Origin: Hyperoodon ampullatus
Lineage: Eukaryota > Chordata > Mammalia > Artiodactyla > Ziphiidae
Assembly (NCBI GenBank): GCA_949752795.1
Contig: OX457074.1
Span: 62,001-126,000 of the forward strand
DNA length: 64,000 nucleotides
Direction of reading: 5' to 3'
The translations under genes and the position numbers were made by a program. The first letter of the stretch is position 1. Each line of letters opens with the position of its first letter. This document shows, in pieces, positions 1-63,959 of the stretch. The notes below the pieces were generated by a model, which had not been told where the DNA came from, ran no database searches, and was given only the letters and a program-made list of their open reading frames with translations.

Positions 1-875
1 CACACCTTACCCTCCGCCGTACCCTCATCCTAATCCGTACGCGGACACTGACCCGCGCGTCCGCACGTGCCCCAACCCTAGCACGTGTCCACACCCTCAC
101 CTGTGCCCTCAGCCTTGCCGTTCCCTAATCCTAAACCTAGCCCGGAACGGAAACCCACCGGCAGCCCCACACCTTAGCCTCCGCCGTACCCTCATCCTAA
201 TCCGTACGCGGACACTGACCCGCGCGTCCGCACGTGCCCCGACCCTAGCACGTGTCCGCACCCTCACCTGTGCCCTCAGCCTTGCCGTTCCCTAACCCTA
301 ACCCTAGCCCGGAACGGAAACCAACCGGCAGCCTCACACCTTAGCCTCTGAAGTACCCTCATCCTAATCCGTACGCGGACACTGACCCGCGCGTCCGCAC
401 GTGCCCCGACCCTAGCACGTGTCCGCTCCCTCACCTGTGCCCTCAGCCTTGCCGTTCCCTAACCCTAACCCTAGCCCGGAACGGAAACCCACCGGCAGCC
501 CCACACCTTAGCCTCCGCCGTACCCTCATCCTAATCCGTACGCGGACACTGACCCGCGCGTCCGCACGTGCCCCGACCCTAGCACGTGTCCGCACCCTCA
601 CCTGTGCCCTCAGCCTTGCAATTCCCTAACCCTAACCCTAGCCCGGAACGGAAACCCACCGGCAGCCTCACACCTTAGCTTCCGACGTACCCTGATCCTA
701 ATCCGTACGCGGACACTGACCCGCGCTTCCGCACGTGCCCCGACCCTAGCACGTGTCCGCACCCTCACCTGTGCCCTCAGCCTTGCCGTTCCCTAACCCT
801 AACCCTAGCCCGGAACGGAAACCCACCGGCAGCCCCACACCTTAGCCTCCGCCGTACCCTCATCCTAATCCGTAC

Positions 876-927
876 GCGGACACTGACCCGCGCGTCCGCA
901 CGTGCCCCGACCCTAGCACGTGTCCGC
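876..927. other. Dyad-symmetry region with alternative hairpins, reference copy
   Basis: GCGGACAC (876-883) is the exact reverse complement of GTGTCCGC (920-927), giving 8-bp arms. Nested inside, CACGTGC (899-905) can pair with GCACGTG (916-922) with a 10-nt loop. GCGGAC (876-881) can instead pair with GTCCGC (895-900). Phase 41-92 of each monomer is therefore a compact dyad that could form a hairpin or cruciform in single-stranded DNA or RNA. Confidence 0.6.
899..922. promoter_or_regulatory. Paired CACGTG (E-box) palindromes, reference copy
   Basis: Two perfect CACGTG hexamers lie at 899-904 and 917-922, 18 bp apart start to start. Both recur in nearly every monomer, and a related CACCTG follows at 933-938. 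CACGTG is the core site of bHLH factors (Myc/Max, USF, Pho4, Cbf1 families). Occasional copies lose one site (CATGTG, CACCTG and CACGTA variants). The motif is seen; occupancy is speculation, and part of the conservation may simply reflect array homogenisation. Confidence 0.55.
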
Positions 928-957
928 ACCCTCACCTGTGCCCTCAGCCTTGCCGTT

Positions 958-978
958 CCCTAACCCTAACCCTAGCCC
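958..978 (-). other. Telomere-type box / predicted G-quadruplex, reference copy
   Basis: The + strand reads four CCC tracts separated by TAA, TAA and TAG. The minus strand therefore carries four GGG tracts with 3-nt loops (CTA, TTA, TTA), the classical telomeric G-quadruplex pattern G3N3G3N3G3N3G3. The C-rich strand could form an i-motif. The same box sits at phase 123-143 of most monomers, giving roughly one potential quadruplex per 167 bp across the window. Some monomers have lost a tract (for example AAACCTAG or AATCCTAG forms). Folding is inferred from pattern only. Confidence 0.85.
961..975 (-). promoter_or_regulatory. Two overlapping TRF-type (YTAGGGTTR) sites, reference copy
   Basis: On the minus strand the box contains CTAGGGTTA (+ strand 967-975) and TTAGGGTTA (+ strand 961-969). 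Both fit the YTAGGGTTR consensus of the vertebrate telomere proteins TRF1/TRF2. The pair repeats in most monomers. Whether such a protein binds here depends on the organism, which is unknown; the match is seen and the binding is inferred. Confidence 0.5.
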
Positions 979-1169
979 GGAACGGAAACCCACCGGCAGC
1001 CCCACACCTTAGCCTCCACCGTACCTTCATCCTAATCCGTACGCGGACACTGACCCACGCGTCCGCACGTGCCCCGACCCTAGCACGTGTCCGCACCCTC
1101 ACCTGTGCCCTCAGCCTTGCCGTTCCCTAACCCTAACCCTAGCCCGGAACGGAAACCCACCGGCAGCCC

Positions 1170-1670
1170 CACACCTTAGCCTCCGCTGTACCCTCATCCT
1201 CATCCGTACGCGGACACTGACCCTCGCGTCCACACGTGCCCCGACCCTAGCACGTGTCCGCACCCTCACCTGTGCCCTCAGCCTTGCCGTTCCCTAACCC
1301 TAACCCTAGCCCGGAACGGAAACCCACCGGCAGCCCCACACCTTACCCTCCGCCGCTCCCTCATCCTCATCCATACGCGGACACTGACCCGCGCGTCCGC
1401 ACGTGCCCCGACCCTAGCACGTGTCCGCACCCTCTCCTGTGCCCTCAGCCTTGCCGTTCCCTAACCCTAACCCTAGACCGGAACGGAAACCCACCGGCGG
1501 CCCCACACCTTACCCTCCGCCGTACCCTCATCCTAATCCGTACGCGGACACTGACCCGCGCGTCCGCACTTGCCCCGACCCTAGCACGTGTCCGCACCCT
1601 CACCTGTGCCCTCAGCCTTGCCGTTCCCTAACCCTAAACCTAGCCCGGAACGGAAACCCACCGGCAGCCC
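1170..1670 (+). repeat. Landmark three-monomer cassette, copy 1
   Basis: Three consecutive variant monomers. The first has GCTGTACC, CTCATCCTCATCC and CCCTCGCGTCCACACG. The second has CCTTAC, GCCGCTCCC, CCATACG, CCCTCTCCTG and CTAGACCGG. The third has GGCGGCCCC and CCTTAC. The two CCTTAC changes remove the usual TAG and open two overlapping 125-codon frames. This copy has a private CACTTGCCCC in its third monomer. Confidence 0.85.
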
Positions 1671-3639
1671 CACACCTTAGCCTCCGCCGTACCCTCATCC
1701 TAATCCGTACGCGGACACTGACCCGCGTGTCCGCACGTGCCCCGACCCTAGCACGTGTCCGCACCCTCACCTGTGCCCTCAGCCTTGCCGTTCCCTAACC
1801 CTAACCCTAGCCGGGAACGGAAACCCACCGGCAGCCTCACACCTTAGCCTCTGACGTACCCTCATCCTAATCCGTACGCGGACACTGACCCGCGCGTCCG
1901 CACGTGCCCCGACCCTAGCACGTGTCCGCACCCTCACCTGTGCCCTCAGCCTTGCCGTTCCCTAACCCTAACCCTAGCCCGGAACGGAAACCCACCGGCA
2001 GCCCCACACCTTAGCCTCCGCCGTACCCTCATCCTCATCCGTACGCGGACACTGACCCGCGCGTCCGCACGTGCCCCGACCCTAGCACGTGTCCGCACCC
2101 TCTCCTGTGCCCTCAGCCTTGCCGTTCCCTAACCCTAACCCTAGCCCGGAACGGAAACCCACTGGCAGCCCCACACCTTAGCCTCCACCGTACCCTCATC
2201 CTAATCCGTACTCGGACACTGACCCGCGCGTCCGCACGTGCCCCGACCCTAGCACGTGTCCGCACCCTCACCTGTGCCCTCAGCCTTGCCGTTCCCTAAC
2301 CCTAGCCCTAGCCCAGAACGGAAACCCACCGGCAGCCCCACACCTTAGCCTCCGCCGTACCCTCATCCTAATCCGTACGCGGACACTGACCCGCGCGTCC
2401 GCACGTGCCCCGACCCTAGCACGTGTCCGCAACATCGCCTGTGCCCTCAGCCTTGCCGTTCCCTAACCCTAACCCTAGCCCGGAACGGAAACCCCCCGGC
2501 AGCCCCACACCTTAGCCTCCGCCGTACCCTCATCCTAATCCGTACGCGGACACTGACCCGCGCGTCCGCACGTGCCCTGACCCTAGCACGTGTCCGCACC
2601 CTCACCTGTGCCCTCATCCTTGCCGTTCCCTAACCCTAACCCTACCCCGGAAGGGAAACCCACTGGCAGCCCCACACCTTAGCCCCCGCCGTACCCTCAT
2701 CCTTATCCGTACGCGGACACTGACCCGCGCATCCGCACGTGCCCCGACCCTAGCACGTGTCCGCCCCCTCACCTGTGCCCTCAGCCTTGCCGTTCCCTAA
2801 CCCTAACCCTAGCCCGGAACGGAAACCCACCGGCAGCCCCACACCTTAGCCTCCGCCGTACGCTCATCCTAATCCGTACGCGGACACTGACCCACACGTC
2901 CGCACGTGCCCCGACCCTAGCACGTGTCCGCACCCTCACCTGTGCCCTCAGCCTTGCCGTTCCCTAACCCTAACCCTAGCCCGGAACGGAAACCCACCGG
3001 CAGCCCCACACCTTAGCCCCCGCCGTACCCTCATCCTAATCCGTACGCGGACACTGACCCGCGCGTCCGCACGTGCCCCGACCCTAGCACGTGTCCGCAC
3101 CCTCACCTGTGCCCTCAGCCTTGCCGTTCCCTAACCCTAACCCTAGCCCGGAAGGGAAACCCACTGGCAGCCCCACACCTTAGCCCCCGCCGTACCCTCA
3201 TCCTAATCCGTACGCGGACACTGACCCGCGCGTCCGCACGTGCACCGACCCTAGCACGTGTCCGCACCCTCCCCTGTGCCCTCAGCCTTGCCGTTCCCTA
3301 ACCCTAACCCTAGCCCGGAACGGAAACCCACCGGCAGACCCACACCTTAGCCTCCGCCGTACCCTCATCCTCATCCGTACGCGGACACTGACCCGCGCGT
3401 CCGCACGTGCCCCGACCCTAGCACGTGTCCGCACCCTCACCTGTGCCCTCAGCCTTGCCGTTCCCTAACCCTAACCCTAGCCCGGAACGGAAACCCACCG
3501 GCAGCCCCACACCTTACCCTCCGCCGTACCCTCATCCTCATCTGTACGCGGACACTGACCCGCACGTACGCACGTGCCCCAACCCTAGCACGTGTCCGCA
3601 CCCTCACCTGTGCCCTCAGCCTTGCCGTTCCCTAACCCT

Positions 3640-6600
3640 AACCCTAGCCCGGATTGGAAACCCACCGGCAGCCCCACACCTTAGCCTCCGCCGTACCCTC
3701 ATCCTAATCCGTACACGGACAATAACCCGCGCGTCCGCACGTGCCCCGACCCTAGCACGTGTCCGCACCCTCACCTGTGCCCTCAGCCTTGCCGTTCCCT
3801 AACCCTAACCCTAGCCCGGAACGGAAACCCACCGGCAGCCCCACACCTTAGCCTCCGCCGTACCCTCATCCTAATCCGTACGCGGACACTGACCCGCGCG
3901 TCCGCACGTGCCCCGACCCTAGCACGTATCTGCACCCTCCCCTGTGCCCTCAGCCTTGCCGTTCCCTAACCCTAACCCTAGCCCGGAAGGGAAACCCACC
4001 GGCAGCCCCACACCTTAGCCTCCGCCGTAACCTCATCCTAATCCGTACGCGGACACTGACCCGCGCTTCCGCACGTGCCCCGACCCTAGCACGTGTCCGC
4101 ACCCTCACCTGTGCCCTCAGCCTTGCCGTTCCCTAACCCTAACCCTAGCCCGGAACGGAAACCCACCGGCAGCCCCACACCTTAGCCTCCGCCGTACCCT
4201 CATCCTAATCCGTACGCGGACACTGACCCGCGCGTCCGCACGTGCCCCGACCCTAGCACGTGTCCGCACCCTCACCTGTGCCCTCAGCCTTGCCGTTCCC
4301 TAACCCTAACCCTAGCCCGGAACGGAAACCCACCGGCAGCCCCACACCTTAGCCTCCGCCGTACCCTCATCTTAATCCGTACGCGGACACTGACCCGCGC
4401 GTCCGCACGTGCCCCGACCCTACCACGTGTCCGCACCCTCACCTGTTCCCTCAGCCTTGCCGTTCCCTAACCCTAACCCTAGCCCGGAACGGAAACCCAC
4501 CGGCAGCCCCACACCTTAGCCTCCGCCATACCCTCATCCTAATCCGTACGCGGACACTGACCCGCGCGTTCGCACGTGCCCCGACCCTAGCACGTGTCCG
4601 CAACCTCACCTGTGCCCTCAGCCTTGCCGTTCCCTAACCCTAACCCTAGCCCGGAATGGAAACCCACCGGCAGCCCCACACCTTAGCCTCCGCCGTACCT
4701 TCATCCTAATCCGTACGCGGACACTGACCCGCGAGTCTGCACGTGCCCCGAACCTAGCACGTGTCCGCACCCTCACCTGTGCCCTCAGCCTTGCCGTTCC
4801 CTAACCCTAACCCTAGCCCGGAAGGGAAACCCACCGGCAGCCCCACACCTTAGCCTCCGCCGTACCCTCATCCTAATCCGTACGCGGACACTGACCCGCG
4901 CGTCCGCACGTGCCCCGACCCTAGCACGTGTCCGCACCCTCACCTGTGCCCTCAGCCTTGCCGTTCCCTAACCCTAACCCTAGCCCGGAACGGAAACCCA
5001 CCGGCAGCCCCACACCTTAGCCTCCGCCGTACCCTCATCCTAATCCGTACGCGGACACTGACCCGCGCGTCCGCACGTGCCCCGACCCTAGCACGTGTCC
5101 GCACCCTCACCTGTTCCCTCAGCCTTGCCGTTCCCTAACCCTAACCCTAGCCCGGAACGGAAACCCACCGGCAGCCCCACACCTTAGCCTCCGCCGTACC
5201 CTCATCCTAATCCGTACGCGGACACTGACCCGCGCGTCCGCACGTGCCCCGACCCTAGCACGTGTCCGCATCCTCACCTGTGCCCTCAGCCTTGCCGTTC
5301 CCTAACCCTAACCCTAGCCCGGAACAGAAACCCACCGGCAGCCCCACACCTTAGCCTCCGCCGTACCCTCATCCTAATCCGTACGCGGACACTGACCCGC
5401 GCGTCCGCACCTGCCCCGACCCTAGCACGTGTCCGCACCCTCACCTGTGCCCTCAGCTTTGCCGTTCCCTAACCCTAACCCTAGCCCGGAACGGAAACCC
5501 ACCGGCAGCCCCACACCTTAGTCTCCGCCGTACCCTCATCCTAATCCGTACGCGGACACTGACCCGCGCGTCCGCACGTGCCCCGACCCTAGCACGTGTC
5601 CGCACCCTCACCTGTGCCCTTAGCATTGCAATTCCCTAACCCTAACCCTAGCCCGGAACGGAAACCCACCGGCAGCCTCACACCTTAGCCTCCGACGTAC
5701 CCTGATCCTACTCCGTACACGGACACTGACCCGCGCTTCCGCACTTGCCCCGACCCTAGCACGTGTCCGCACCCTCACCTGTGCCCTCAGCCTTGCCGTT
5801 CCCTAACCCTAACCCTAGCCCGGAACGGAAACCCACCGGCAGCCCCACACCTTAGCCTCCGCCGTACCCTCATCCTAATCCGTACGCGGACACTGACCCG
5901 CGCGTCCGCACGTGCCACGACCCTAGCACGTGTCCGCACCCTCACCCGTGCCCTCAGCCTTGCCGTTCCCTAACCCTAACCCTAGCCCGGAACGGAAACC
6001 CACCGGCAGCCCCACACCTTAGCCTCCGCCGTACCTTCATCCTAATCCGTACGCGGACACTGACCCGCGCGTCCGCACGTGCCCCGACCCTAGCACGTGT
6101 CCGCACCCTCACCTGTGCCCTCAGCCTTGCCGTTCCCTAACCCTAACCCTAGCCCGGAAGGGAAACCCACCGGCAGCCCCACACCTTAGCCTCCGCCGTA
6201 CCCTCATCCTAATCCGTACGCGGACACTGACCCGCGTGTCCGCACGTGCCCCGACCCTAGCACGTGTCCGCACCCTCACCTGTGCCCTCAGCCTTGCCGT
6301 TCCCTAACCCTAATCCTAGCCCGGAACGGAAACCCACCGGCAGCCCCACACCTTAGCCTCCGCCGTACCCTCATCCTAATCCGTACGCGGACACTGACCC
6401 ACGCGTCCGCACGTGCCCCGACCCTAGCACGTGTCCGCACCCTCACCTGTGCCCTCAGCCTTGCCGTTCCCTAACCCTAACCCTAGCCCGGAACGGAAAC
6501 CCACCGGCAGCCCCACACCTTAGCCTCCGCCGTACCCTCATCCTAATCCGTACGCGGACACTGACCCGCGCGTCCGCACGTGCCCCGACCCTAGCACGTG

Positions 6601-9300
6601 TCCGCACCCTCACCTGTGCCCTCAGCCTTGCCGTTCCCTAACCCTAACCCTAGCCCGGAACGGAAACCCACCGGCAGCCCCACACCTTAGCCTCCGCCGT
6701 ACCCTCATCCTAATCCGTACGCGGACACTGACCCGCGAGTCCGCACGTGCCCCGAACCTAGCACGTGTCCGCACCCTCACCTGTGCCCTCAGCCTTGTCG
6801 TTCCCTAACCCTAACCCTAGCCCGGAACGGAAACCCACCGGCAGCCCCACACCTTAGCCTCCGCCGTACCCTCATCCTAATCCGTACGCGGACACTGACC
6901 CGCGCGTCCGCACGTGCCCCGACCCTAGCACGTGTCCCCACCCTCACCTGTGCCCTCAGCCTTGCCGTTCCCTAACCCTAACCCTAGCCCGGAACGGAAA
7001 CCCACCGGCAGCCCCACACCTTAGCCTCCACCGTACCCTCATCCTAATCCGTACGCGGACACTGACCCGCGCGTCCGCACGTGCCCCGACCCTAGCACGT
7101 GTCCGCACCCTCACCTGTGCCCTCAGCCTTGCCGTTCCCTAACCCTAACCCTAGCCCGGAAGGGAAACCCACCGGCAGCCCCACACCTTAGCCTCCGCCG
7201 TACCCTCATCCTAATCCGTACGCGGACACTGACCCGCGCGTCCGCACGTGCCCCGACCCTAGCACGTGTCCGCACCCTCACCTGTGCCCTCAGCCTTGCC
7301 GTTCCCTAACCCTAACCCTAGCCCGGAACGGAAACCCACCGGCAGCCCCACACCTTAGCCTCCGCCATACCCTCATCCTAATCCGTACGCGGACACTGAC
7401 CCGCGCGTTCGCACGTGCCCCGACCCTAGCACGTGTCCGCAACCTCACCTGTGCCCTCAGCCTTGCCGTTCCCTAACCCTAACCCTAGCCCGGAACGGAA
7501 ACCCACCGGCAGCCCCACACCTTAGCCTCCGCCGTACCTTCATCCTAATCCGTACGCGGACACTGACCCGCGAGTCTGCACGTGCCCCGAACCTAGCACG
7601 TGTCCGCACCCTCACCTGTGCCCTCAGCCTTGCCGTTCCCTAACCCTAACCCTAGCCCGGAAGGGAAACCCACCGGCAGCCCCACACCTTAGCCTCCGCC
7701 GTACCCTCATCCTAATCCATACGCGGACACTGACCCGCGCGTCCGCACGTGCCCCGACCCTAGCACGTGTCCGCACCCTCACCTGTGCCCTCAGCCTTGC
7801 CGTTCCCTAACCCTAACCCTAGCCCGGAACGGAAACCCACCGGCAGCCCCACACCTTAGCCTCCGCCGTACCCTCATCCTAATCCGTACGCGGACACTGA
7901 CCCGCGCGTCCGCACGTGCCCCGACCCTAGCACGTGTCCGCACCCTCACCTGTTCCCTCAGCCTTGCCATTCCCTAACCCTAACCCTAGCCCGGAACGGA
8001 AACCCACCGGCAGCCCCACACCTTAGCCTCCGCCGTACCCTCATCCTAATCCGTACGCGGACACTGACCCGCGCGTCCGCACGTGCCCCGACCCTAGCAC
8101 GTGTCCGCACCCTCACCTGTGCCCTCAGCCTTGCCGTTCCCTAACCCTAACCCTAGCCCGGAACAGAAACCCACCGGCAGCCCCACACCTTAGCCTCCGC
8201 CGTACCCTCATCCTAATCCGTACGCGGACACTGACCCGCGCGTCCGCACCTGCCCCGACCCTAGCACGTGTCCGCACCCTCACCTGTGCCCTCAGCTTTG
8301 CCGTTCCCTAACCCTAACCCTAGCCCGGAACGGAAACCCACCGGCAGCCCCACACCTTAGTCTCCGCCGTACCCTCATCCTAATCCGTACGCGGACACTG
8401 ACCCGCGCGTCCGCACGTGCCCCGACCCTAGCACGTGTCCGCACCCTCACCTGTGCCCTTAGCATTGCAATTCCCTAACCCTAACCCTAGCCCGGAACGG
8501 AAACCCACCGGCAGCCTCACACCTTAGCCTCCGACGTACCCTGATCCTACTCCGTACGCGGACACTGTCCCGCGCTTCCGCACTTGCCCCGACCCTAGCA
8601 CGTGTCCGCACCCTCACCTGTGCCCTCAGCCTTGCCGTTCCCTAACCCTAACCCTAGCCCGGAACGGAAACCCACCGGCAGCCCCACACCTTAGCCTCCG
8701 CCGTACCCTCATCCTAATCCGTACGCGGACACTGACCCGCGCGTCCGCACGTGCCACGACCCTAGCACGTGTCCGCACCCTCACCCGTGCCCTCAGCCTT
8801 GCCGTTCCCTAACCCTAACCCTAGCCCGGAACGGAAACCCACCGGCAGCCCCACACCTTAGCCTCCGCCGTACCTTCATCCTAATCCGTACGCGGACACT
8901 GACCCGCGCGTCCGCACGTGCCCCGACCCTAGCACGTGTCCGCACCCTCACCTGTGCCCTCAGCCTTGCCGTTCCCTAACCCTAACCCTAGCCCGGAAGG
9001 GAAACCCACCGGCAGCCCCACACCTTAGCCTCCGCCGTACCCTCATCCTAATCCGTACGCGGACACTGACCCGCGTGTCCGCACGTGCCCCGACCCTAGC
9101 ACGTGTCCGCACCCTCACCTGTGCCCTCAGCCTTGCCGTTCCCTAACCCTAATCCTAGCCCGGAACGGAAACCCACCGGCAGCCCCACACCTTAGCCTCC
9201 GCCGTACCCTCATCCTAATCCGTACGCGGACACTGACCCACGCGTCCGCACGTGCCCCGACCCTAGCACGTGTCCGCACCCTCACCTGTGCCCTCAGCCT
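3640..9300 (+). repeat. Segmental block B, copy 1 (repeated at 23.5 kb)
   Basis: Matches 23.5-29.2 kb at offset 19,871 bp (119 monomers minus 2). Anchors: CGGATTGG at 3650, GGACAATAAC at 3717, GCCATACC at 4525 and 7364, AATCCTAG near 6311. It contains the 17-monomer higher-order unit twice, the second time incompletely. Confidence 0.8.
4490..7328 (+). repeat. 17-monomer higher-order unit (2,839 bp), first complete copy
   Basis: Variant monomers recur in the same order 2,839 bp (17 x 167) later, for example GCCATACC at 4525 and 7364 and CCCACGCG at about 6400 and 9239. The following copy at about 7.33-9.3 kb is incomplete (about 12 of 17 monomers) before the order changes. Confidence 0.75.
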
Positions 9301-9329
9301 TGCCGTTCCCTAACCCTAACCCTAGCCCG

Positions 9330-12300
9330 GAACGGAAACCAACCGGCAGCCTCACACCTTAGCCTCTGAAGTACCCTCATCCTAATCCGTACGCGGACAC
9401 TGACCCGCGCGTCCGCACGTGCCCCGACCCTAGCACGTGTCCGCACCCTCACCTGTGCCCTCAGCCTTGCCGTTCCCTAACCCTAACCCTAGCCCGGATT
9501 GGAAACCCACCGGCAGCCCCACACCTTAGCCTCCGCCGTACCCTCATCCTAATCCGTACGCGGACACTGACCCGCGCGTCCGCACGTGCCCCGACCCTAG
9601 CACGTGTCCGCACCCTCACCTGTGCCCTCAGCCTTGCCGTTCCCTAACCCTAACCCTAGCCCGGAACGGAAACCCACCGGCAGCCCCTCACCTTAGCCTC
9701 CGCCGTACCCTCATCCTAATCCGTACGCGGACACTGACCCGCGCGTCCGCACGTGCCCCGAACCTAGCACGTGTCCGCACCCTCACCTGTGCCCTCAGCC
9801 TTGCCGTTCCCTAACCCTAACCCTAGCCCGGACGGGAAACCCACCGGCAGCCCCACACCTTAGCCTCCGCCGTACCCTGATCCTAATCCGTACGCAGACA
9901 CTGACCCGCGCGTCCGCACGTGCCCCGACCCTAGCACGTGTCCGCACCCTCACCTGTGCCCTCAGCCTTGCCGTTCCCTAACCCTAACCCTAGCCCGGAA
10001 CGGAAACCCACCGGCAGCCCCACACCTTAGCCTCCGCCGTACCCTCATCCTAATCCGTACGCGGACACTGACCCGCGCGTCCGCACGTGCCCCGACCCTA
10101 GCACGTGTCCGCACCCTCACCTGTGCCCTTAGCCTTGCAATTCCCTAACCCTAACCCTAGCCCGGAACGGAAACCCACCGGCAGCCTCACACCTTAGCCT
10201 CCGACGTACCCTGATCCTAATCCGTACGCAGACACTGACCCGCGCTTCCGCACTTGCCCCGACCCTAGCACGTGTCCGCACCCTCACCTGTGCCCTCAGC
10301 CTTGCCGTTCCCTAACCCTAACCCTAACCGGAACGGAAACACACCGGCAGCCCCACACCTTAGCCTCCGCCGTACCCTCATCCTAATCCGTACGCGGACA
10401 CTGACCCGCGCGTCCGCACGTGCCACAACCCTAGCACGTGTCCGCACCCTCACCTGTGCCCTCAGCCTTGCCGTTCCCTAACCCTAACCCTAGCCCGGAA
10501 CGGAAACCCACCGGCAGCCCCACACCTTAGCCTCTGCCGTACCCTCATCCTAATCCGTACGCGGACACTGACCCGCGCGTCCGCACGTGCCCCGACCCTA
10601 GCACGTGTCCGCACCGTCACCTGTGCCCTCAGCCTTGCCGTTCCCTAACCCTAACCCTAGCCCGGAAGGGAAAGCCACCGGCAGCCCCACACCTTAGCCT
10701 CCGCCGTACCCTCATCCTAATCCGTACGCGGACACTGACCCGCGTGTCCGCACGTGCCCCGACCCTAGCACGTGTCCGCACCCTCACCTGTGCCCTCAGC
10801 CTTGCCATTCCCTAACCCTAACCCTAGCCCGGAACGGAAACCCACCGGCAGCCCCACACCTTAGCCTCCGCCGTACCCTCATCCTAATCCGTACGCGGAC
10901 ACTGACCCGCGCGTCCGCACGTGCCCCGACCCTAGCACGTGTCCGCACCCTCACCTGTTCCCTCAGCCTTGCCGTTCCCTAACCCTAACCCTAGCCCGGA
11001 ACAGAAACCCACCGGCAGCCCCACACCTTAGCCTCCGCCGTACCCTCATCCTAATCCGTACGCGGACACTGACCCGCGCGTCCGCACGTGCCCCGAACCT
11101 AGCACGTGTCCGCACCCTCACCTGTGCCCTCAGCCTTGTCGTTCCCTAACCCTAACCCTAGCCCGGAACGGAAACCCACCGGCAGCCCCACACCTTAGCC
11201 TCCGCCGTACCCTCATCCTAATCCGTACGCGGACACTGACCCGCGCGTCCGCACGTGCCCCGACCCTAGCACGTGTCCGCACCCTCACCTGTGCCCTCAG
11301 CCTTGCCGTTCCCTAACCCTAAACCTAGCCCGGACGGGAAACCCACCGGCAGCCCCACACCTTAGCCTCCGCCGTACCCTCATCCTAATCCGTACGCGGA
11401 CACTGACCCGCGCGTCCGCACGTGCCCCGACCCTAGCATGTGTCCGCACCCTCACCTGTGCCCTCAGCCTTGCCGTTCCCTAACCCTAACCCTAGCCCGG
11501 AACGGAAACCCACGGGCATCCCCACACCTTAGCCTCCGCCGTACCCTCATCCTAATCCGTACGCGGACACTGACCCGCGCGTCCGCACGTGCCCCGACCC
11601 TAGCACGTGTCCGCACCCTCACCTGTGCCCTCAGCCTTGCAATTCCCTAACCCTAACCCTAGCCCGGAACGGAAACCCACCGGCAGCCTCACACCTCAGC
11701 CTCCGACGTACCCTGATCCTAATCCGTACGCGGACACTGACCCGCGCTTCCGCACGTGCCCCGACCCTAGCACGTGTCCGCACCCTCACCTGTGCCCTCA
11801 GCCTTGCCGTTCCCTAACCCTAACCCTAGCCCGGAACGGAAACCCACCGGCAGCCCCACACCTTAGCCTCTGCCGTACCCTCATCCTAATCCGTACGCGG
11901 ACACTGACCCGCGCGTCCGCACATGCCCCGACCCTAGCACGTGTCCGCACCCTCACCTGTGCCCTCAGCCTTGCCGTTTCCTAACCCTAACCCTAGCCCG
12001 GATCGGAAACCCACCGGCAGCCCCACACCTTAGCCTCCGCCGTACCCTCATCCTAATCCGTACGCGGACACTGACCCGCGCGTCCGCACGTGCCCCGACC
12101 CTAGCACGTGTCCGCACCCTCACCTGTGCCCTCAGCCTTGCCGTTCCCTAACCCTAACCCTAGCCCGGAACGGAAACCAACCGGCAGCCTCACACCTTAG
12201 CCTCTGAAGTACCCTCATCCTAATCCGTACGCGGACACTGACCCGCGCGTCCGCACGTGCCCCGACCCTAGCACGTGTCCGCTCCCTCACCTGTGCCCTC

Positions 12301-13500
12301 AGCCTTGCCGTTCCCTAACCCTAACCCTAGCCCGGAACGGAAACCCACCGGCAGCCCCACACCTTAGCCTCCGCCGTACCCTCATCCTAATCCGTACGCG
12401 GACACTGACCCGCGCGTCCGCACGTGCCCCGACCCTAGCACGTGTCCGCACCCTCACCTGTGCCCTCAGCCTTGCAATTCCCTAACCCTAACCCTAGCCC
12501 GGAACGGAAACCCACCGGCAGCCTCACACCTTAGCTTCCGACGTACCCTGATCCTAATCCGTACGCGGACACTGACCCGCGCTTCGGCACGTGCCCCGAC
12601 CCTAGCACGTGTCCGCACCCTCACCTGTGCCCTCAGCCTTGCCGTTCCCTAACCCTAACCCTAGCCCGGAACGGAAACCCACCGGCAGCCCCACACCTTA
12701 GCCTCCGCCGTACCCTCATCCTAATCCGTACGCGGACACTGACCCGCGCGTCCGCCCGTGCCCCGACCCTAGCACGTGTCCGCACCCTCACCTGTGCCCT
12801 CAGCCTTGCCGTTCCCTAACCCTAACCCTAGCCCGGAACGGAAACCCACCGGCAGCCCCACACCTTAGCCTCCACCGTACCTTCATCCTAATCCGTACGC
12901 GGACACTGACCCACGCGTCCGCACGTGCCCCGACCCTAGCACGTGTCCGCACCCTCACCTGTGCCCTCAGCCTTGCCGTTCCCTAACCCTAACCCTAGCC
13001 CGGAACGGAAACCCACCGGCAGCCCCACACCTTAGCCTCCGCTGTACCCTCATCCTCATCCGTACGCGGACACTGACCCTCGCGTCCACACGTGCCCCGA
13101 CCCTAGCACGTGTCCGCACCCTCACCTGTGCCCTCAGCCTTGCCGTTCCCTAACCCTAACCCTAGCCCGGAACGGAAACCCACCGGCAGCCCCACACCTT
13201 ACCCTCCGCCGCTCCCTCATCCTCATCCATACGCGGACACTGACCCGCGCGTCCGCACGTGCCCCGACCCTAGCACGTGTCCGCACCCTCTCCTGTGCCC
13301 TCAGCCTTGCCGTTCCCTAACCCTAACCCTAGACCGGAACGGAAACCCACCGGCGGCCCCACACCTTACCCTCCGCCGTACCCTCATCCTAATCCGTACG
13401 CGGACACTGACCCGCGCGTCCGCACGTGCCCCGACCCTAGCACGTGTCCGCACCCTCACCTGTGCCCTCAGCCTTGCCGTTCCCTAACCCTAACCCTAGC
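9330..13500 (+). repeat. Direct block duplication C, copy 1
   Basis: Repeats immediately downstream. The offset is 4,174 bp up to about 12.0 kb and 4,508 bp after about 12.15 kb, so this copy is two monomers shorter. Anchors: AACCAACCGG near 9341, the 1-bp deletion monomer at 10188, CATGTGTCC at 11438, CCACGGGCATCC near 11.51 kb and cassette copy 2. Confidence 0.8.
10188..10353 (+). repeat. 166-bp monomer with 1-bp deletion (first copy)
   Basis: This is one of only two monomers that are not 167 bp. The loss is at about 10325-10330, where the CCCTAGCCCGG end of the telomere box reads CCCTAACCGG. The G4 pattern loses its fourth C tract. The monomer also has CACACC in place of CCCACC just downstream (about 10340-10345). 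The deletion changes the register, which also produces a short spurious minus-strand reading frame here. Confidence 0.9.
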
Positions 13501-13526
13501 CCGGAACGGAAACCAACCGGCAGCCT
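13026..13526 (+). repeat. Landmark three-monomer cassette, copy 2
   Basis: Same variants as copy 1 (GCCGCTCCC, CTAGACCGG, GGCGGCCCC). After it the sequence switches to an AACCAACCGG / CTCTGAAGTACC monomer, not the AAACCTAG monomers that follow most other copies. This places the edge of the 9.3-13.5 kb block at the cassette's 3' side. Confidence 0.85.
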
Positions 13527-14361
13527 CACACCTTAGCCTCTGAAGTACCCTCATCCTAATCCGTACGCGGACACTGACCCGCGCGTCCGCACGTGCCCCG
13601 ACCCTAGCACGTGTCCGCACCCTCACCTGTGCCCTCAGCCTTGCCGTTCCCTAACCCTAACCCTAGCCCGGAATGGAAACCCACCGGCAGCCCCACACCT
13701 TAGCCTCCGCCGTACCCTCATCCTAATCCGTACGCGGACACTGACCCGCGCGTCCGCACGTGCCCCGACCCTAGCACGTGTCCGCACCCTCACCTGTGCC
13801 CTCAGCCTTGCCGTTCCCTAACCCTAACCCTAGCCCGGAACGGAAACCCACCGGCAGCCCCTCACCTTAGCCTCCGCCGTACCCTCATCCTAATCCGTAC
13901 GCGGACACTGACCCGCGCGTCCGCACGTGCCCCGACCCTAGCACGTGTCCGCACCCTCACCTGTGCCCTCAGCCTTGCCGTTCCCTAACCCTAACCCTAG
14001 CCCGGAAGGGAAACCCACCGGCAGCCCCACACCTTAGCCTCCGCCGTACCCTGATCCTAATCCGTACGCAGACACTGACCCGCGCGTCCGCACGTGCCCC
14101 GACCCTAGCACGTGTCCGCACCCTCACCTGTGCCCTCAGCCTTGCCGTTCCCTAACCCTAACCCTAGCCCGGAACGGAAACCCACCGGCAGCCCCACACC
14201 TTAGCCTCCGCCGTACCCTCATCCTAATCCGTACGCGGACACTGACCCGCGCGTCCGCACGTGCCCCGACCCTAGCACGTGTCCGCACCCTCACCTGTGC
14301 CCTTAGCCTTGCAATTCCCTAACCCTAACCCTAGCCCGGAACGGAAACCCACCGGCAGCCT

Positions 14362-14527
14362 CACACCTTAGCCTCCGACGTACCCTGATCCTAATCCGTA
14401 CGCAGACACTGACCCGCGCTTCCGCACTTGCCCCGACCCTAGCACGTGTCCGCACCCTCACCTGTGCCCTCAGCCTTGCCGTTCCCTAACCCTAACCCTA
14501 ACCGGAACGGAAACACACCGGCAGCCC
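14362..14527 (+). repeat. 166-bp monomer with the same 1-bp deletion (second copy)
   Basis: It carries the same CCCTAACCGG deletion and the same neighbouring CACACC change as the monomer at 10188-10353, exactly 4,174 bp away (25 monomers minus one base). It is a duplicate of that event, carried by the 9.3-13.5 / 13.5-18.0 kb block duplication, and not an independent deletion. Confidence 0.9.
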
Positions 14528-15099
14528 CACACCTTAGCCTCCGCCGTACCCTCATCCTAATCCGTACGCGGACACTGACCCGCGCGTCCGCACGTGCCAC
14601 AACCCTAGCACGTGTCCGCACCCTCACCTGTGCCCTCAGCCTTGCCGTTCCCTAACCCTAACCCTAGCCCGGAACGGAAACCCACCGGCAGCCCCACACC
14701 TTAGCCTCTGCCGTACCCTCATCCTAATCCGTACGCGGACACTGACCCGCGCGTCCGCGCGTGCCCCGACCCTAGCACGTGTCCGCACCGTCACCTGTGC
14801 CCTCAGCCTTGCCGTTCCCTAACCCTAACCCTAGCCCGGAAGGGAAAGCCACCGGCAGCCCCACACCTTAGCCTCCGCCGTACCCTCATCCTAATCCGTA
14901 CGCGGACACTGACCCGCGTGTCCGCACGTGCCCCAACCCTAGCACGTGTCCGCACCCTCACCTGTGCCCTCAGCCTTGCCGTTCCCTAACCCTAACCCTA
15001 GCCCGGAACGGAAACCCACCGGCAGCCCCACACCTTAGCCTCCGCCGTACCCTCATCCTAATCCGTACGCGGACACTGACCCGCGCGTCCGCACGTGCC

Positions 15100-16690
15100 C
15101 CGACCCTAGCACGTGTCCGCACCCTCACCTGTTCCCTCAGCCTTGCCGTTCCCTAACCCTAACCCTAGCCCGGAACAGAAACCCACCGGCAGCCCCACAC
15201 CTTAGCCTCCGCCGTACCCTCATCCTAATCCGTACGCGGACACTGACCCGCGCGTCCGCACGTGCCCCGAACCTAGCACGTGTCCGCACCCTCACCTGTG
15301 CCCTCAGCCTTGTAGTTCCCTAACCCTAACCCTAGCCCGGAACGAAAACCCACCGGCAGCCCCACACCTTAGCCTCCGCCGTACCCTCATCCTAATCCGT
15401 ACGCGGACACTGACCCGCGCGTCCGCACGTGCCCCGACCCTAGCACGTGTCCGCACCCTCACCTGTGCCCTCAGCCTTGCCGTTCCCTAACCCTAAACCT
15501 AGCCCGGACGGGAAACCCACCGGCAGCCCCACACCTTAGCCTCCGCCGTACCCTCATCCTAATCCGTACGCGGACACTGACCCGCGCGTCCGCACGTGCC
15601 CCGACCCTAGCATGTGTCCGCACCCTCACCTGTGCCCTCAGCCTTGCCGTTCCCTAACCCTAACCCTAGCCCGGAACGGAAACCCACGGGCATCCCCACA
15701 CCTTAGCCTCCGCCGTACCCTCATCCTAATCCGTACGCGGACACTGACCCGCGCGTCCGCACGTGCCCCGACCCTAGCACGTGTCCGCACCCTCACCTGT
15801 GCCCTCAGCCTTGCAATTCCCTAACCCTAACCCTAGCCCGGAACGGAAACCCACCGGCAGCCTCACACCTCAGCCTCCGACGTACCCTGATCCTAATCCG
15901 TACGCGGACACTGACCCGCGCTTCCGCACGTGCCCCGACCCTAGCACGTGTCCGCACCCTCACCTGTGCCCTCAGCCTTGCCGTTCCCTAACCCTAACCC
16001 TAGCCCGGAATGGAAACCCACCGGCAGCCCCACACCTTAGCCTCTGCCGTACCCTCATCCTAATCCGTACGCGGACACTGACCCGCGCGTCCGCACATGC
16101 CCCGACCCTAGCACGTGTCCGCACCCTCACCTGTGCCCTCAGCCTTGCCGTTTCCTAACCCTAACCCTAGCCCGGAACGGAAACCCACCGGCAGCCCCAC
16201 ACCTTAGCCTCCGCCGTACCTTCATCCTAATCCGTACGCGGACACTGACCCGCGCGTCCGCACGTGCCCCGACCCTAGCACGTGTCCGCACCTTCTCCTG
16301 TGCCCTCAGCCTTGCCGTTCCCTAACCCTAACCCTAGACCGGATCGGAAACCCACCGGCAGCCCCACACCTTACCCTCCGCCGTACCCTCATCCTAATCC
16401 GTACGCGGACACTGACCCGCGCGTCCGCACGTGCCCCGACCCTAGCACGTGTCCACACCCTCACCTGTGCCCTCAGCCTTGCCGTTCCCTAACCCTAAAC
16501 CTAGCCCGGAACGGAAACCCACCGGCAGCCCCACACCTTAGCCTCCGCCGTACCCTCATCCTAATCCGTACGCGGACACTGACCCGCGCGTCCGCACGTG
16601 CCCCGACCCTAGCACGTGTCCGCACCCTCACCTGTGCCCTCAGCCTTGCCGTTCCCTAACCCTAACCCTAGCCCGGAACGGAAACCAACC
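15100..16690 (+). repeat. Segmental block D, copy 1
   Basis: Matches 31.97-33.56 kb at offset 16,867 bp (101 monomers). Anchors: GGAACAGAAAC at 15176, CCACGGGCATCC at 15691 and CTAGACCGGATCGG near 16340. Confidence 0.75.
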
Positions 16691-17049
16691 GGCAGCCTCA
16701 CACCTTAGCCTCTGAAGTACCCTCATCCTAATCCGTACGCGGACACTGACCCGCGCGTCCGCACGTGCCCCGACCCTAGCACGTGTCCGCTCCCTCACCT
16801 GTGCCCTCAGCCTTGCCGTTCCCTAACCCTAAACCTAGCCCGGAACGGAAACCCACCGGCAGCCCCACACCTTAGCCTCCGCCGTACCCTCATCCTAATC
16901 CGTACGCGGACACTGACCCGCGCGTCCGCACGTGCCCCGACCCTAGCACGTGTCCGCACCCTCACCTGTGCCCTCAGCCTTGCAATTCCCTAACCCTAAC
17001 CCTAGCCCGGAACGGAAACCCACCGGCAGCCTCACACCTTAGCTTCCGA

Positions 17050-20000
17050 CGTACCCTGATCCTAATCCGTACGCGGACACTGACCCGCGCTTCCGCACGT
17101 GCCCCGACCCTAGCACGTGTCCGCACCCTCACCTGTGCCCTCAGCCTTGCCGTTCCCTAACCCTAACCCTAGCCCGGAACGGAAACCCACCGGCAGCCCC
17201 ACACCTTAGCCTCCGCCGTACCCTCATCCTAATCCGTACGCGGACACTGACCCGCGCGTCCGCACGTGCCCCGACCCTAGCACGTGTCCGCACCCTCACC
17301 TGTGCCCTCAGCCTTGCCGTTCCCTAACCCTAACCCTAGCCCGGAACGGAAACCCACCGGCAGCCCCACACCTTAGCCTCCACCGTACCTTCATCCTAAT
17401 CCGTACGCGGACACTGACCCACGCGTCCGCACGTGCCCCGACCCTAGCACGTGTCCGCACCCTCACCTGTGCCCTCAGCCTTGCCGTTCCCTAACCCTAA
17501 CCCTAGCCCGGAACGGAAACCCACCGGCAGCCCCACACCTTAGCCTCCGCTGTACCCTCATCCTCATCCGTACGCGGACACTGACCCTCGCGTCCACACG
17601 TGCCCCGACCCTAGCACGTGTCCGCACCCTCACCTGTGCCCTCAGCCTTGCCGTTCCCTAACCCTAACCCTAGCCCGGAACGGAAACCCACCGGCAGCCC
17701 CACACCTTACCCTCCGCCGCTCCCTCATCCTCATCCATACGCGGACACTGACCCGCGCGTCCGCACGTGCCCCGACCCTAGCACGTGTCCGCACCCTCTC
17801 CTGTGCCCTCAGCCTTGCCGTTCCCTAACCCTAACCCTAGACCGGAACGGAAACCCACCGGCGGCCCCACACCTTACCCTCCGCCGTACCCTCATCCTAA
17901 TCCGTACGCGGACACTGACCCGCGCGTCCGCACGTGCCCCGACCCTAGCACGTGTCCGCACCCTCACCTGTGCCCTCAGCCTTGCCGTTCCCTAACCCTA
18001 AACCTAGCCCGGAACGGAAACCCACCGGCAGCCCCACACCTTAGCCTCCGCCGTACCCTCATCCTAATCCGTACGCGGACACTGACCCGCGTGTCCGCAC
18101 GTGCCACGACCCTAGCACGTGTCCGCACCCTCACCTGTGCCCTCAGCCTTGCCGTTCCCTAACCCTAACCCTAGCCGGGAACGGAAACCCACCGGCAGCC
18201 TCACACCTTAGCCTCTGACGTACCCTCATCCTAATCCGTACGCGGACACTGACCCGCGCGTCCGCACGTGCCCCGACCCTAGCACGTGTCCGCACCCTCA
18301 CCTGTGCCCTCAGCCTTGCCGTTCCCTAACCCTAACCCTAGCCCGGAACGGAAACCCACCGGCAGCCCCACACCTTAGCCTCCGCCGTACCCTCATCCTC
18401 ATCCGTACGCGGACACTGACCCGCGCGTCCGCACGTGCCCCGACCCTAGCACGTGTCCGCACCCTCTCCTGTGCCCTCAGCCTTGCCGTTCCCTAACCCT
18501 AACCCTAGCCCGGAACGGAAACCCACTGGCAGCCCCACACCTTAGCCTCCACCGTACCCTCATCCTAATCCGTACTCGGACACTGACCCGCGCGTCCGCA
18601 CGTGCCCCGACCCTAGCACGTGTCCGCACCCTCACCTGTGCCCTGAGCCTTGCCGTTCCCTAACCCTAGCCCTAGCCCAGAACGGAAACCTACCGGCAGC
18701 CCCACACCTTAGCCTCCGCCGTACCCTCATCCTAATCCGTACGCGGACACTGACCCGCGCGTCCGCACGTGCCCCGACCCTAGCACGTGTCCGCAACATC
18801 GCCTGTGCCCTCAGCCTTGCCGTTCCCTAACCCTAACCCTAGCCCGGAACGGAAACCCCCCGGCAGCCCCACACCTTAGCCTCCGCCGTACCCTCATCCT
18901 AATCCGTACGCGGACACTGACCCGCGCGTCCGCACGTGCCCTGACCCTAGCACGTGTCCGCACCCTCACCTGTGCCCTCATCCTTGCCGTTCCCTAACCC
19001 TAACCCTACCCCGGAAGGGAAACCCACTGGCAGCCCCACACCTTAGCCCCCGCCGTACCCTCATCCTTATCCGTACGCGGACACTGACCCGCGCATCCGC
19101 ACGTGCCCCGACCCTAGCACGTGTCCGCCCCCTCACCTGTGCCCTCAGCCTTGCCGTTCCCTAACCCTAACCCTAGCCCGGAACGGAAACCCACCGGCAG
19201 CCCCACACCTTAGCCTCCGCCGTACGCTCATCCTAATCCGTACGCGGACACTGACCCACACGTCCGCACGTGCCCCGACCCTAGCACGTGTCCGCACCCT
19301 CACCTGTGCCCTCAGCCTTGCCGTTCCCTAACCCTAACCCTAGCCCGGAACGGAAACCCACCGGCAGCCCCACACCTTAGCCCCCGCCGTACCCTCATCC
19401 TAATCCGTACGCGGACACTGACCCGCGCGTCCGCACGTGCCCCGACCCTAGCACGTGTCCGCACCCTCACCTGTGCCCTCAGCCTTGCCGTTCCCTAACC
19501 CTAACCCTAGCCCGGAAGGGAAACCCACTGGCAGCCCCACACCTTAGCCCCCGCCGTACCCTCATCCTAATCCGTACGCGGACACTGACCCGCGCGTCCG
19601 CACGTGCACCGACCCTAGCACGTGTCCGCACCCTCACCTGTGCCCTCAGCCTTGCCGTTCCCTAACCCTAACCCTAGCCCGGAACGGAAACCCACCGGCA
19701 GACCCACACCTTAGCCTCCGCCGTACCCTCATCCTCATCCGTACGCGGACACTGACCCGCGCGTCCGCACGTGCCCCGACCCTAGCACGTGTCCGCACCC
19801 TCACCTGTGCCCTCAGCCTTGCCGTTCCCTAACCCTAACCCTAGCCCGGAACGGAAACCCACCGGCAGCCCCACACCTTACCCTCCGCCGTACCCTCATC
19901 CTCATCTGTACGCGGACACTGACCCGCACGTACGCACGTGCCCCAACCCTAGCACGTGTCCGCACCCTCACCTGTGCCCTCAGCCTTGCCGTTCCCTAAC

Positions 20001-22150
20001 CCTAACCCTAGCCCGGATTGGAAACCCACCGGCAGCCCCACACCTTAGCCTCCGCCGTACCCTCATCCTAATCCGTACGCGGACAATAACCCGCGCGTCC
20101 GCACGTGCCCCGACCCTAGCACGTGTCCGCACCCTCACCTGTGCCCTCAGCCTTGCCGTTCCCTAACCCTAACCCTAGCCCGGAACGGAAACCCACCGGC
20201 AGCCCCACACCTTAGCCTCCGCCGTACCCTCATCCTAATCCGTACGCGGACACTGACCCGCGCGTCCGCACGTGCCCCGACCCTAGGACGTATCTGCACC
20301 CTCCCCTGTGCCCTCAGCCTTGCCGTTCCCTAACCCTAACCCTAGCCCGGAAGGGAAACCCACCGGCCGCCCCACACCTTAGCCTCCGCCGTACCCTCAT
20401 CCTAATCCGTACGCGGACACTGACCCGCGCTTCCGCACGTGCCCCGACCCTAGCACGTGTCCGCACCCTCACCTGTGCCCTCAGCCTTGCCGTTCCCTAA
20501 CCCTAACCCTAGCCCGGAACGGAAACCCACCGGCAGCCCCACACCTTAGCCTCCGCCGTACCCACATCCTAATCCGTACGCGGACACTGACCCGCGCGTC
20601 CGCACGTGCCCCGACCCTAGCACGTGTCCGCACCCTCACCTGTGCCCTCAGCCTTGCCGTTCCCTAACCCTAACCCTAGCCCGGAACGGAAACCCACCGG
20701 CAGCCCCACACCTTAGCCTCCGCCGTACCCTCATCTTAATCCGTACGCGGACACTGACCCGCGCGTCCGCACGTGCCCCGACCCTACCACGTGTCCGCAC
20801 CCTCACCTGTTCCCTCAGCCTTGCCGTTCCCTAACCCTAACCCTAGCCCGGAACGGAAACCCACCGGCAGCCCCACACCTTAGCCTCCGCCATACCCTCA
20901 TCCTAATCCGTACGCGGACACTGACCCGCGCGTTCGCACGTGCCCCGACCCTAGCACGTGTCCGCAACCTCACCTGTGCCCTCAGCCTTGCCGTTCCCTA
21001 ACCCTAACCCTAGCCCGGAACGGAAACCCACCGGCAGCCCCACACCTTAGCCTCCGCCGTACCTTCATCCTAATCCGTACGCGGACACTGACCCGCGAGT
21101 CTGCACGTGCCCCGAACCTAGCACGTGTCCGCACCCTCACCTGTGCCCTCAGCCTTGCCGTTCCCTAACCCTAACCCTAGCCCGGAAGGGAAACCCACCG
21201 GCAGCCCCACACCTTAGCCTCCGCCGTACCCTCATCCTAATCCGTACGCGGACACTGACCCGCGCGTCCGCACGTGCCCCGACCCTAGCACGTGTCCGCA
21301 CCCTCACCTGTGCCCTCAGCCTTGCCGTTCCCTAACCCTAACCCTAGCCCGGAACGGAAACCCACCGGCAGCCCCACACCTTAGCCTCCGCCGTACACTC
21401 ATCCTAATCCGTACGCGGACACTGACCCGCGCGTCCGCACGTGCCCCGACCCTAGCACGTGTCCGCACCCTCACCTGTTCCCTCAGCCTTGCCGTTCCCT
21501 AACCCTAACCCTAGCCCGGAACGGAAACCCACCGGCAGCCCCACACCTTAGCCTCCGCCGTACCCTCATCCTAATCCGTACGCGGACACTGACCCGCGCG
21601 TCCGCACGTGCCCCGACCCTAGCACGTGTCCGCATCCTCACCTGTGCCCTCAGCCTTGCCGTTCCCTAACCCTAACCCTAGCCCGGAACAGAAACCCACC
21701 GGCAGCCCCACACCTTAGCCTCCGCCGTACCCTCATCCTAATCCGTACGCGGACACTGACCCGCGCGTCCGCACCTGCCCCGACCCTAGCACGTGTCCGC
21801 ACCCTCACCTGTGCCCTCAGCTTTGCCGTTCCCTAACCCTAACCCTAGCCCGGAACGGAAACCCACCGGCAGCCCCACACCTTAGTCTCCGCCGTACCCT
21901 CATCCTAATCCGTACGCGGACACTGACCCGCGCGTCCGCACGTGCCCCGACCCTAGCACGTGTCCGCACCCTCACCTGTGCCCTTAGCATTGCAATTCCC
22001 TAACCCTAACCCTAGCCCGGAACGGAAACCCACCGGCAGCCTCACACCTTAGCCTCCGACGTACCCTGATCCTACTCCGTACGCGGACACTGACCCGCGC
22101 TTCCGCACTTGCCCCGACCCTAGCACGTGTCCGCACCCTCACCTGTGCCC
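17050..22150 (+). repeat. Segmental block E, copy 1
   Basis: Matches 34.25-39.35 kb at offset 17,201 bp (103 monomers). Anchors: cassette copy 3, ACGTATCTG at 20287 (here mutated to GACGTATCTG), GCCATACC at 20889 and CAGCTTTGCC near 21820. Confidence 0.85.
17534..18034 (+). repeat. Landmark three-monomer cassette, copy 3
   Basis: Shares GCCGCTCCC, CTAGACCGG and GGCGGCCCC with copies 1 and 2 and is followed by the same run of variant monomers as copy 1. It lies 27 monomers (minus 1 bp) from copy 2 and 98 monomers (minus 2 bp) from copy 1. Confidence 0.85.
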
Positions 22151-29850: not shown

Positions 29851-29879
29851 AACCCTAACCCTAGCCCGGAACGGAAACC

Positions 29880-34208: not shown

Positions 34209-34250
34209 CGGAACGGAAACCCACCGGCAGCCTCACACCTTAGCTTCCGA

Positions 34251-51400: not shown

Positions 51401-51879
51401 ACCCTAGCCCGGAACGGAAACCCACCGGCAGCCCCACACATTAGCCTCCGCCGTACCCTCATCCTAATCCGTACGCGGACACTGACCCGCGCGTCCGCAC
51501 GTGCCCCGAACCTAGCACGTGTCCGCACCCTCACCTGTGCCCTCAGCCTTGTCGTTCCCTAACCCTAACCCTAGCCCGGTACGGAAACCCACCGGCAGCC
51601 CCACACCTTAGCCTCCGACGTACCCTGATCCTAATCCGTACGCGGACACTGACCCGCGCATCCGCACGTGCCCCGACCCTAGCACGTGTCCGCACCCTCA
51701 CCTGTGCCCTCAGCCTTGCCGTTCCCTAACCCTAACCCTAGCCCGGAACGGAAACCCACCGGCAGCCCCACACCTTAGCCTCTGCCGTACCCTCATCCTA
51801 ATCCGTACGCGGACACTGACCCACGCGTCCGCACGTGCCCCGACCCTAGCACGTGTCCGCACCCTCACCTGTGCCCTCA

Positions 51880-63921: not shown

Positions 63922-63959
63922 CCTAAACCTAGCCCAGACGGGAAACCCACCGGAAGCCC

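What the first reader, a model, noticed from the sequence alone, without database searches (positions are those of the whole stretch)
836..1002. The 167-bp monomer reads as 28 eroded telomeric hexamers, one base short
Starting at phase 124 the consensus divides into 27 hexamers plus 5 bases (28 x 6 - 1 = 167). Column counts over the 27 full hexamers: position 1 C 21, position 2 C 23, position 3 T 12, position 4 A 9 (the commonest), position 5 A 15, position 6 C 18. Overall base fractions are C 0.47, T 0.16 and A 0.18. The modal word is CCTAAC, a rotation of the telomere repeat CCCTAA. Three perfect or near-perfect hexamers survive and the rest are degenerate but in register. This also explains why one reading frame shows proline at every second residue. 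The satellite therefore probably arose from a degenerate telomeric tract that was re-amplified as a 167-bp unit.
Basis: partly seen in the sequence, partly recalled or inferred. Interest (0 to 1): 0.75.

Follow-up and report, generated by a model that had tools for sequence, protein, structure and literature searches.

The report
Satellite grown from decayed telomere repeats
In a whale-like mammal genome, a 167-letter repeat that fills many chromosome tips began as worn telomere sequence, and older copies elsewhere in the same genome still show the steps of that change.

Summary
The window is one head-to-tail array of a 167-bp unit (383 units); its 6-bp register holds after the intact telomeric tract is removed. 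The consensus alone cannot prove telomeric origin: in its non-CCC half, TAA ranks only 6th of 64 triplets. Other loci of the genome settle it. The satellite lies at contig tips, in telomere orientation at 16 of 16 satellite-bearing tips among 44 read, and abuts the telomere at three of them. Older relatives, 71-84% identical, at the array's inner edge and at four internal loci differ mainly by restoring CCCTAA in the same register (176 of 297 differences pooled over the four; 75 expected). Between old copies and window family, 25 changes go AT to GC and none GC to AT, although variants inside the array lean the other way. This points to GC-biased fixation, probably gene conversion. Telomere-related satellites are known, in whales too, so this is a new member of a known kind, with unusually good fossils. 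Telomere re-seeding on the satellite is plausible, unproven.

The parts
1..64000 (+). Homogeneous head-to-tail array of the 167-bp satellite, C-rich strand; part of a block that starts at the first base of contig C19 and ends near 648.6 kb (sampled, not read through)
836..1002 (+). Reference monomer, identical to the consensus
958..975 (+). Intact telomeric tract CCCTAACCCTAACCCTAG of the reference monomer (phase 123-140)
958..978 (-). On the G strand GGGCTAGGGTTAGGGTTAGGG: four G-runs with 3-base loops (quadruplex-type motif) and two YTAGGGTTR half-sites (TRF1 consensus, recalled); a four-run motif is intact in 326 of 383 monomers, two or more half-sites in 338 of 383
   Evidence: sequence
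953..957 (+). CCGTT, the five-base hexamer where the register slips (28 x 6 - 1); perhaps the join of the founding unit
   Evidence: the joining role is inference
46592..51601 (+). 30-monomer block repeated at 58783-63792 with at most one difference per monomer; recent block duplication inside the array
58783..63792 (+). Second copy of the 30-monomer block
10355..10520 (+). One of two 166-bp monomers
14529..14694 (+). Second 166-bp monomer

Best explanation
A terminal satellite DNA derived from telomeric repeats. Steps: (1) a degenerate CCCTAA tract, one base short of register, was amplified as a 167-bp unit; shown: common register and 40 shared deviations across loci, 167-bp spacing also in old copies; inferred: the amplification event. 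(2) Early copies remain at internal loci and at the inner edge of the terminal blocks, where they still look half telomeric (shown). (3) The terminal copies were homogenised within and between chromosome ends, and AT to GC changes were fixed one-way, raising GC from about 0.52 to 0.67; direction shown, GC-biased gene conversion inferred. (4) Blocks spanning 12 kb to about 0.9 Mb now lie at many contig tips in telomere orientation (shown by sampling). (5) Telomere tracts start at different points of the unit, in the six distinct joins found always at a run of two or more Gs, as if telomerase had re-seeded ends that had shortened into the satellite (joins shown, telomerase inferred). The most likely role is passive buffer and recombination partner of chromosome ends, with no coded product.
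For: Periodicity and register fit. Location and orientation: satellite at 6 of 23 contig starts, all plus, and 10 of 21 contig ends, all minus. The same inner junction at 97-100% identity in 10 listed places and a 93-95% version in 8; the 14 of these on chromosome-size contigs all have the expected orientation (a capped list). Edge monomers: 41 of 74 differences restore CCCTAA, null 18.3+-3.1, 0 of 3000 permutations. Internal loci C6 45 of 80, C12 60 of 97, C19 43 of 69, C7 28 of 51, each 0 of 2000 permutations. C15-start subfamily 7 of 15, null 2.0, p=0.0007. TAA columns over the four internal loci 354 of 574 vs 217 of 574 in the window unit. Substitution direction 25:0, at sites not CpG in the window 16:0, stable to leaving out any one of five loci; within-array variant types 21:108 the opposite way, Fisher 1.7e-16, non-CpG 4.9e-9. 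Satellite-telomere joins: 10 matches, 6 distinct points of the unit.
Against: The telomeric tract is not shown to be specially conserved: variant frequency low, but p=0.09 against base-matched non-CpG columns. AT-to-GC variants are not significantly commoner in frequency than GC-to-AT ones in any of three arrays (p 0.20, 0.065, 0.36), so ongoing conversion bias is not shown. Mean overlap at the six joins is not above chance (p=0.25); only the post hoc count, 6 of 6 with at least 2 nt where the null gives 0.43 each, is suggestive. Of the 27 old-versus-window differences 9 are at window CpG sites and may be decay in the old copies. Register shift 5 also shows a small excess (pooled 105 vs 83.9, p=0.001; edge 27 vs 19.6, p=0.014). 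At 17 of 23 starts and 11 of 21 ends the piece read had no satellite; two of these are pure telomere, and others may stop short of the tip. Inside the array new variants do not drift towards or away from CCCTAA beyond chance proportions.
Confidence: 0.87

Rival explanations
1. The monomer is an ordinary C-rich 6-bp (or 18-bp) minisatellite that captured a short telomeric tract; the rest of the unit never was telomeric.
For: From the consensus alone the non-CCC half is not TAA-like: 6th of 64 triplets; by gapped fit CCCTAA ranks 14th of 700 hexamer classes; TRF-bp subrepeats, and with the tract removed lag 18 (66 of 131 positions) is slightly above lag 6 (68 of 143).
Against: Edge monomers and four internal loci restore TAA specifically and in register; in the whole unit lag 18 (81) is not above lag 6 (84).
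Confidence: 0.06
2. Reverse polarity: the GC-rich unit is ancestral and the internal and edge copies are its decayed descendants.
For: The edge monomers carry 16 C>T or G>A differences at window CpG sites, as decay would give.
Against: Decay would not restore CCCTAA: at non-CpG sites the old state equals the template at 15 of 18 differences, the window at 0; the null permuted within base and CpG class gives 75 of 297 against 176 seen.
Confidence: 0.05
3. The AT-to-GC shift is selection on the satellite (for a protein site or for the sequence of the strand) rather than GC-biased gene conversion.
For: Changes are extremely one-sided (25:0), and 16 of the 27 create a G on the C-rich strand.
Against: The changes are spread over the unit; within-array variants carry no clear frequency skew. 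No protein site was tested.
Confidence: 0.25
4. The satellite-telomere joins are products of recombination or of assembly, not of telomerase re-seeding.
For: C251 and C341 each carry the same join three times, which duplication explains; mean overlap is not above chance.
Against: Six different join points, all at runs of two or more Gs and in the orientation that telomerase can extend; at C16 10.6 kb of telomere follow to the contig end.
Confidence: 0.45

Closest known systems
Terminal satellite of whalebone whales (Adegoke, Arnason and Widegren 1993, Chromosoma 102:382; seen only as a citation and title in passages)
   Same: Terminal chromosome position (title); citing papers count it among satellites with telomere-related sequence. 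GC-rich by recall.
   Different: Unit of about 422 bp in rorquals by recall, 167 bp here; sequences could not be compared; the present genome may be a toothed whale.
Telomere-similar arrays at potato centromeres (Tek and Jiang 2004; title seen in a reference list)
   Same: Large arrays related to telomeric repeats.
   Different: Centromeric in potato; at contig tips and in telomere orientation here.
Interstitial telomeric sequences, including heterochromatic ones (PMC3975639, passages)
   Same: Telomere-like hexamers away from the telomere proper.
   Different: Here the hexamers are fixed into a 167-bp satellite unit with its own consensus, and the main blocks are terminal.
FA-SAT of cat and other Bilateria (PMC6379292, start of abstract in a listing)
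   Same: GC-rich satellite.
   Different: Sequence not compared here; unit length differs by recall.

Membership tests
Telomere-derived satellite DNA | Long tandem array of a fixed unit | tested here: met
   383 units in the window, 381 exactly 167 bp
Telomere-derived satellite DNA | 6-bp register with CCCTAA outside any intact tract | tested here: met
   84 of 149 vs 53.8+-2.9, though the TAA half alone is weak in the window consensus (28 of 72)
Telomere-derived satellite DNA | Less decayed relatives that restore CCCTAA in the same register | tested here: met
Telomere-derived satellite DNA | Common ancestry confirmed in related species | not testable with these tools
   the genome has no relatives in the collection
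Whalebone-whale terminal satellite | Terminal position on chromosomes | tested here: met
   16 of 44 contig tips read; inner junctions
Whalebone-whale terminal satellite | Unit of about 422 bp (recalled) | tested here: not met
   167 bp
Whalebone-whale terminal satellite | Sequence homology | not testable with these tools
   its sequence is not held; a search of open papers for six strings of the present unit found none
Whalebone-whale terminal satellite | Host is a cetacean | tested here: inconclusive
   joined myoglobin exons score best with reconstructed ancestral whale myoglobin (305 bits), next 1azi (horse by recall, 299.7), 104m (sperm whale by recall, 297.1); 20 autosome-size contigs plus a 151-Mb and a 20-Mb contig would fit 2n=42, listed for few cetaceans
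Functional telomere repeat | Uniform TTAGGG | tested here: not met
   101 of 167 bases fit

The most novel reading that the evidence does not exclude
The satellite is a telomere reserve: because its G strand keeps a degenerate hexamer ending in Gs about every six bases, an end that erodes into the block can be re-capped by telomerase at many points, while conversion between ends keeps refilling the block and drives it GC-ward. Telomere and satellite would then be two states of one cycling chromosome end.
Probability: 0.25. Interest if true: 0.8.

Novelty: new member of a known kind. Interest (0 to 1): 0.62.

Why it matters
Where satellites come from is rarely traceable, because homogenisation wipes out intermediates. 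Here intermediates are still in the same genome, in register, so origin, founding state and direction of change can be counted. The contrast between AT-ward variants inside the array and GC-ward fixed changes is a McDonald-Kreitman-like test of biased fixation in a satellite, and the satellite-telomere joins make end re-seeding testable with long reads.

Tried and rejected
Rfam scan of the first 4 kb: no match at E up to 1. Exact patterns in viral contigs and in prokaryote genome contigs: none. Papers: wording for a 167-bp satellite gave 3 unrelated papers; six strings of the unit gave none; combined terms gave none. Conservation of the telomeric tract as a sign of function: not significant. 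Join overlap as proof of telomerase: not significant on the mean. Short higher-order repeat: shared-variant fraction is flat at lags 1-12; only long block duplications. Coding: rejected. Two further join patterns, for the rest of the unit, did not complete, so the list of joins covers about 60 bases downstream of one exact anchor only. Rows dropped: monomers aligning over fewer than 155 positions (382 of the window's 383 kept); in the edge test the first 34 aligned columns, the tract columns and an 18-base gap.

Full report
What is there. The window is a single array of a 167-bp unit, about 65% GC, without interruption. 381 of 383 monomers are exactly 167 bp, and these differ from the consensus by 1.8% on average. 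208 of 383 monomers are distinct; neighbours (lags 1-12) are no more alike than the average pair, but long blocks recur, the longest of 30 monomers.

Is the 6-bp register real? Yes. Autocorrelation peaks at 6, 12, 18 and 24 and dips at 3, 9, 15 and 21. It survives removal of the 18-nt telomeric tract, with none of 5000 dinucleotide shuffles as high at lags 6, 12 and 18. The best-register match to CCCTAA without the tract is 84 of 149, shuffles 53.8+-2.9. However, the match sits in the CCC half (53 of 72); the TAA half (28 of 72) is not distinctive by itself. On window data alone a generic C-rich hexamer repeat would have stayed possible.

Where it lies. The window is G000:C19:62001-126000 of a 2.83-Gb genome in 755 contigs. 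The sampled stretches of C19 from base 1 on are satellite, and the block ends near 648.6 kb. I read the terminal 1 kb (10 kb for the C13, C16 and C19 starts, more at the C16 end) of 23 contig starts and 21 contig ends; the ends of C22 and C23 were not read. Satellite was found at 6 starts (C10, C13, C15, C16, C18, C19), always plus, and at 10 ends (C5, C10, C12 to C19), always minus, which is the direction of the telomeric C strand. For C17 the last kilobase is mainly telomere-like and the satellite lies just inside it. The other 17 starts and 11 ends had none in the piece read; the weak 65.6% matches at the C1 end and C6 start are pure telomere and were not counted. Spans from the shared inner junction to the contig end or telomere run from 12 kb (C10 start) to about 906 kb (C16 end); they were sampled, not read through.

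The inner edge. On C19 the last one and a half units are diverged and rich in CCCTAA, then run into a degenerate CCCTAA tract. Outside the tract columns, and leaving out the first 34 aligned columns that still belong to the array, 74 of 256 columns differ from the window consensus. 41 of these restore CCCTAA, 19 lose it, 14 do neither; the null, permuting bases within the same consensus base and CpG class, is 18.3+-3.1, not reached in 3000 permutations. Stopping before the degenerate tract gives 29 of 58 against 15.5+-2.7. TAA is the top triplet in the edge, 76 of 123 columns, against 45 of 123 in the window consensus. The same edge is listed at 97-100% in 10 places and at 93-95% in 8 more, so chromosome ends have exchanged this boundary and these are not independent events.

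Independent relatives. Each alone restores CCCTAA in register: C6 45 of 80 (null 19.7), C12 60 of 97 (23.3), C19 43 of 69 (20.1), C7 28 of 51 (12.2), none of 2000 permutations reaching any of them. Pooled, 176 of 297 against 75.3+-6.2; among the other registers only shift 5 shows a small excess, 105 against 83.9. A more distant subfamily at the C15 start (28 monomers) shows 7 of 15 against 2.0. At its 16 differing sites the edge carries the C15 base at 10 and the window base at 9, some sites counting for both because the edge has two copies, so that subfamily is only partly intermediate. The end of the unplaced contig C254 is ordinary window-type satellite and shows no restoring (0 of 10 differences).

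Direction of change. A majority state over the five older loci differs from the window unit at 27 sites. The old state equals CCCTAA at 20, the window at 1; 25 changes are AT to GC, none the reverse, two are C to G. At sites that are not CpG in the window the figures are 18 sites, 15 against 0, and 16 against 0; dropping any one locus leaves no GC-to-AT change. Inside the window variant types lean the other way, 108 GC-to-AT and 21 AT-to-GC; the contrast gives Fisher p 1.7e-16, non-CpG 4.9e-9, and the C16-start and C13-start arrays agree. The frequencies of the two classes of variant do not differ significantly. 40 deviations from CCCTAA are shared by old and window families, so the founding unit was already degenerate.

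Joins with the telomere. At the C16 end the satellite passes straight into 10.6 kb of TTAGGG repeats; the C12 and C17 ends show other join points, and C12 continues in mixed TTAGGG and TTCGGG. A genome-wide pattern scan from one anchor found 10 joins, all in the same orientation, at 6 distinct points of the unit; C251 and C341 each carry one join three times. By the script's rule the six distinct joins share 2 to 9 nt with the telomere; the null gives 2 nt or more in 0.43 of cases, but the mean overlap is not above chance (p=0.25). Telomerase re-seeding is therefore the favoured but unproven reading.

Motifs. The G strand of the unit keeps GGGCTAGGGTTAGGGTTAGGG; a four-run motif is intact in 326 of 383 monomers, and two or more YTAGGGTTR sites occur in 338 of 383. 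That TRF1 binds this word is recalled. The tract is not significantly more conserved than matched columns (p=0.09), so I claim no selected function for it.

Host. Contig sizes suggest about 20 autosomes and a 151-Mb and a 20-Mb sex-chromosome-like contig. Translated myoglobin exons score best with reconstructed ancestral whale myoglobins, by a small margin over a chain that is horse by recall. Among cetaceans 2n=42 is listed for right and bowhead whales, sperm whales and beaked whales (passages of PMC5738608). From recall, the exon 1 letters look like beaked whale myoglobin. The host is probably a cetacean; the species is not established.

What is known. Citing papers state that telomere-related sequences are a component of satellite DNA, with whales among the examples (PMC3975639 passages; PMC5088352 passages). 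The whale paper itself was not available; its content is recalled. I found no print of this unit in the searches, which cover open-licence papers only and of which only listings and passages were seen.

Verdict. Observation confirmed; origin from telomeric repeats strongly supported by loci outside the window; GC-biased fixation well supported in direction, mechanism inferred; telomere re-seeding plausible. New member of a known kind, with unusually good fossils.

Noticed in passing
L015 5628-9787 and L016 (C19 about 665-710 kb); by eye also the starts of C3, C8, C14 and C21: Other telomere-like minisatellites with 24/48/96-bp units such as CCTTAGTTAGGGACACTGTCAGGG and hexamer runs GGGGCT, which change strand near L015:9788; possibly a second telomere-derived family.
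   Followed up: no
L013 about 9030-9760: Just inside the degenerate telomeric tract the sequence looks like a retroviral long terminal repeat (by eye); described only.
   Followed up: no
L060 340-1000 (C12 end): Distal to the satellite the telomere is an irregular mixture of TTAGGG and TTCGGG.
   Followed up: no
C251 29515, 33582, 38984 and C341 123086, 131400, 133702: The same satellite-to-telomere join occurs three times within each contig, so telomeric tracts seem to be interspersed with satellite there.
   Followed up: partly
window 1-64000: Among variant types at non-CpG sites C>A (33) outnumber C>T (24), an unusual transversion excess.
   Followed up: no
C6 127.90 Mb, C7 2.61 Mb, C12 18.4 Mb, C17 52.09 Mb, C19 30.04 Mb, C20 1.4, 1.8 and 25.0 Mb, C21 133.4 Mb: Old copies away from the tips; those deep inside contigs might mark former chromosome ends or fusion points.
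   Followed up: partly
L069 (C1 230444001-230448200): Long run of N directly inside the C1 telomere, an assembly gap or a withheld stretch.
   Followed up: no
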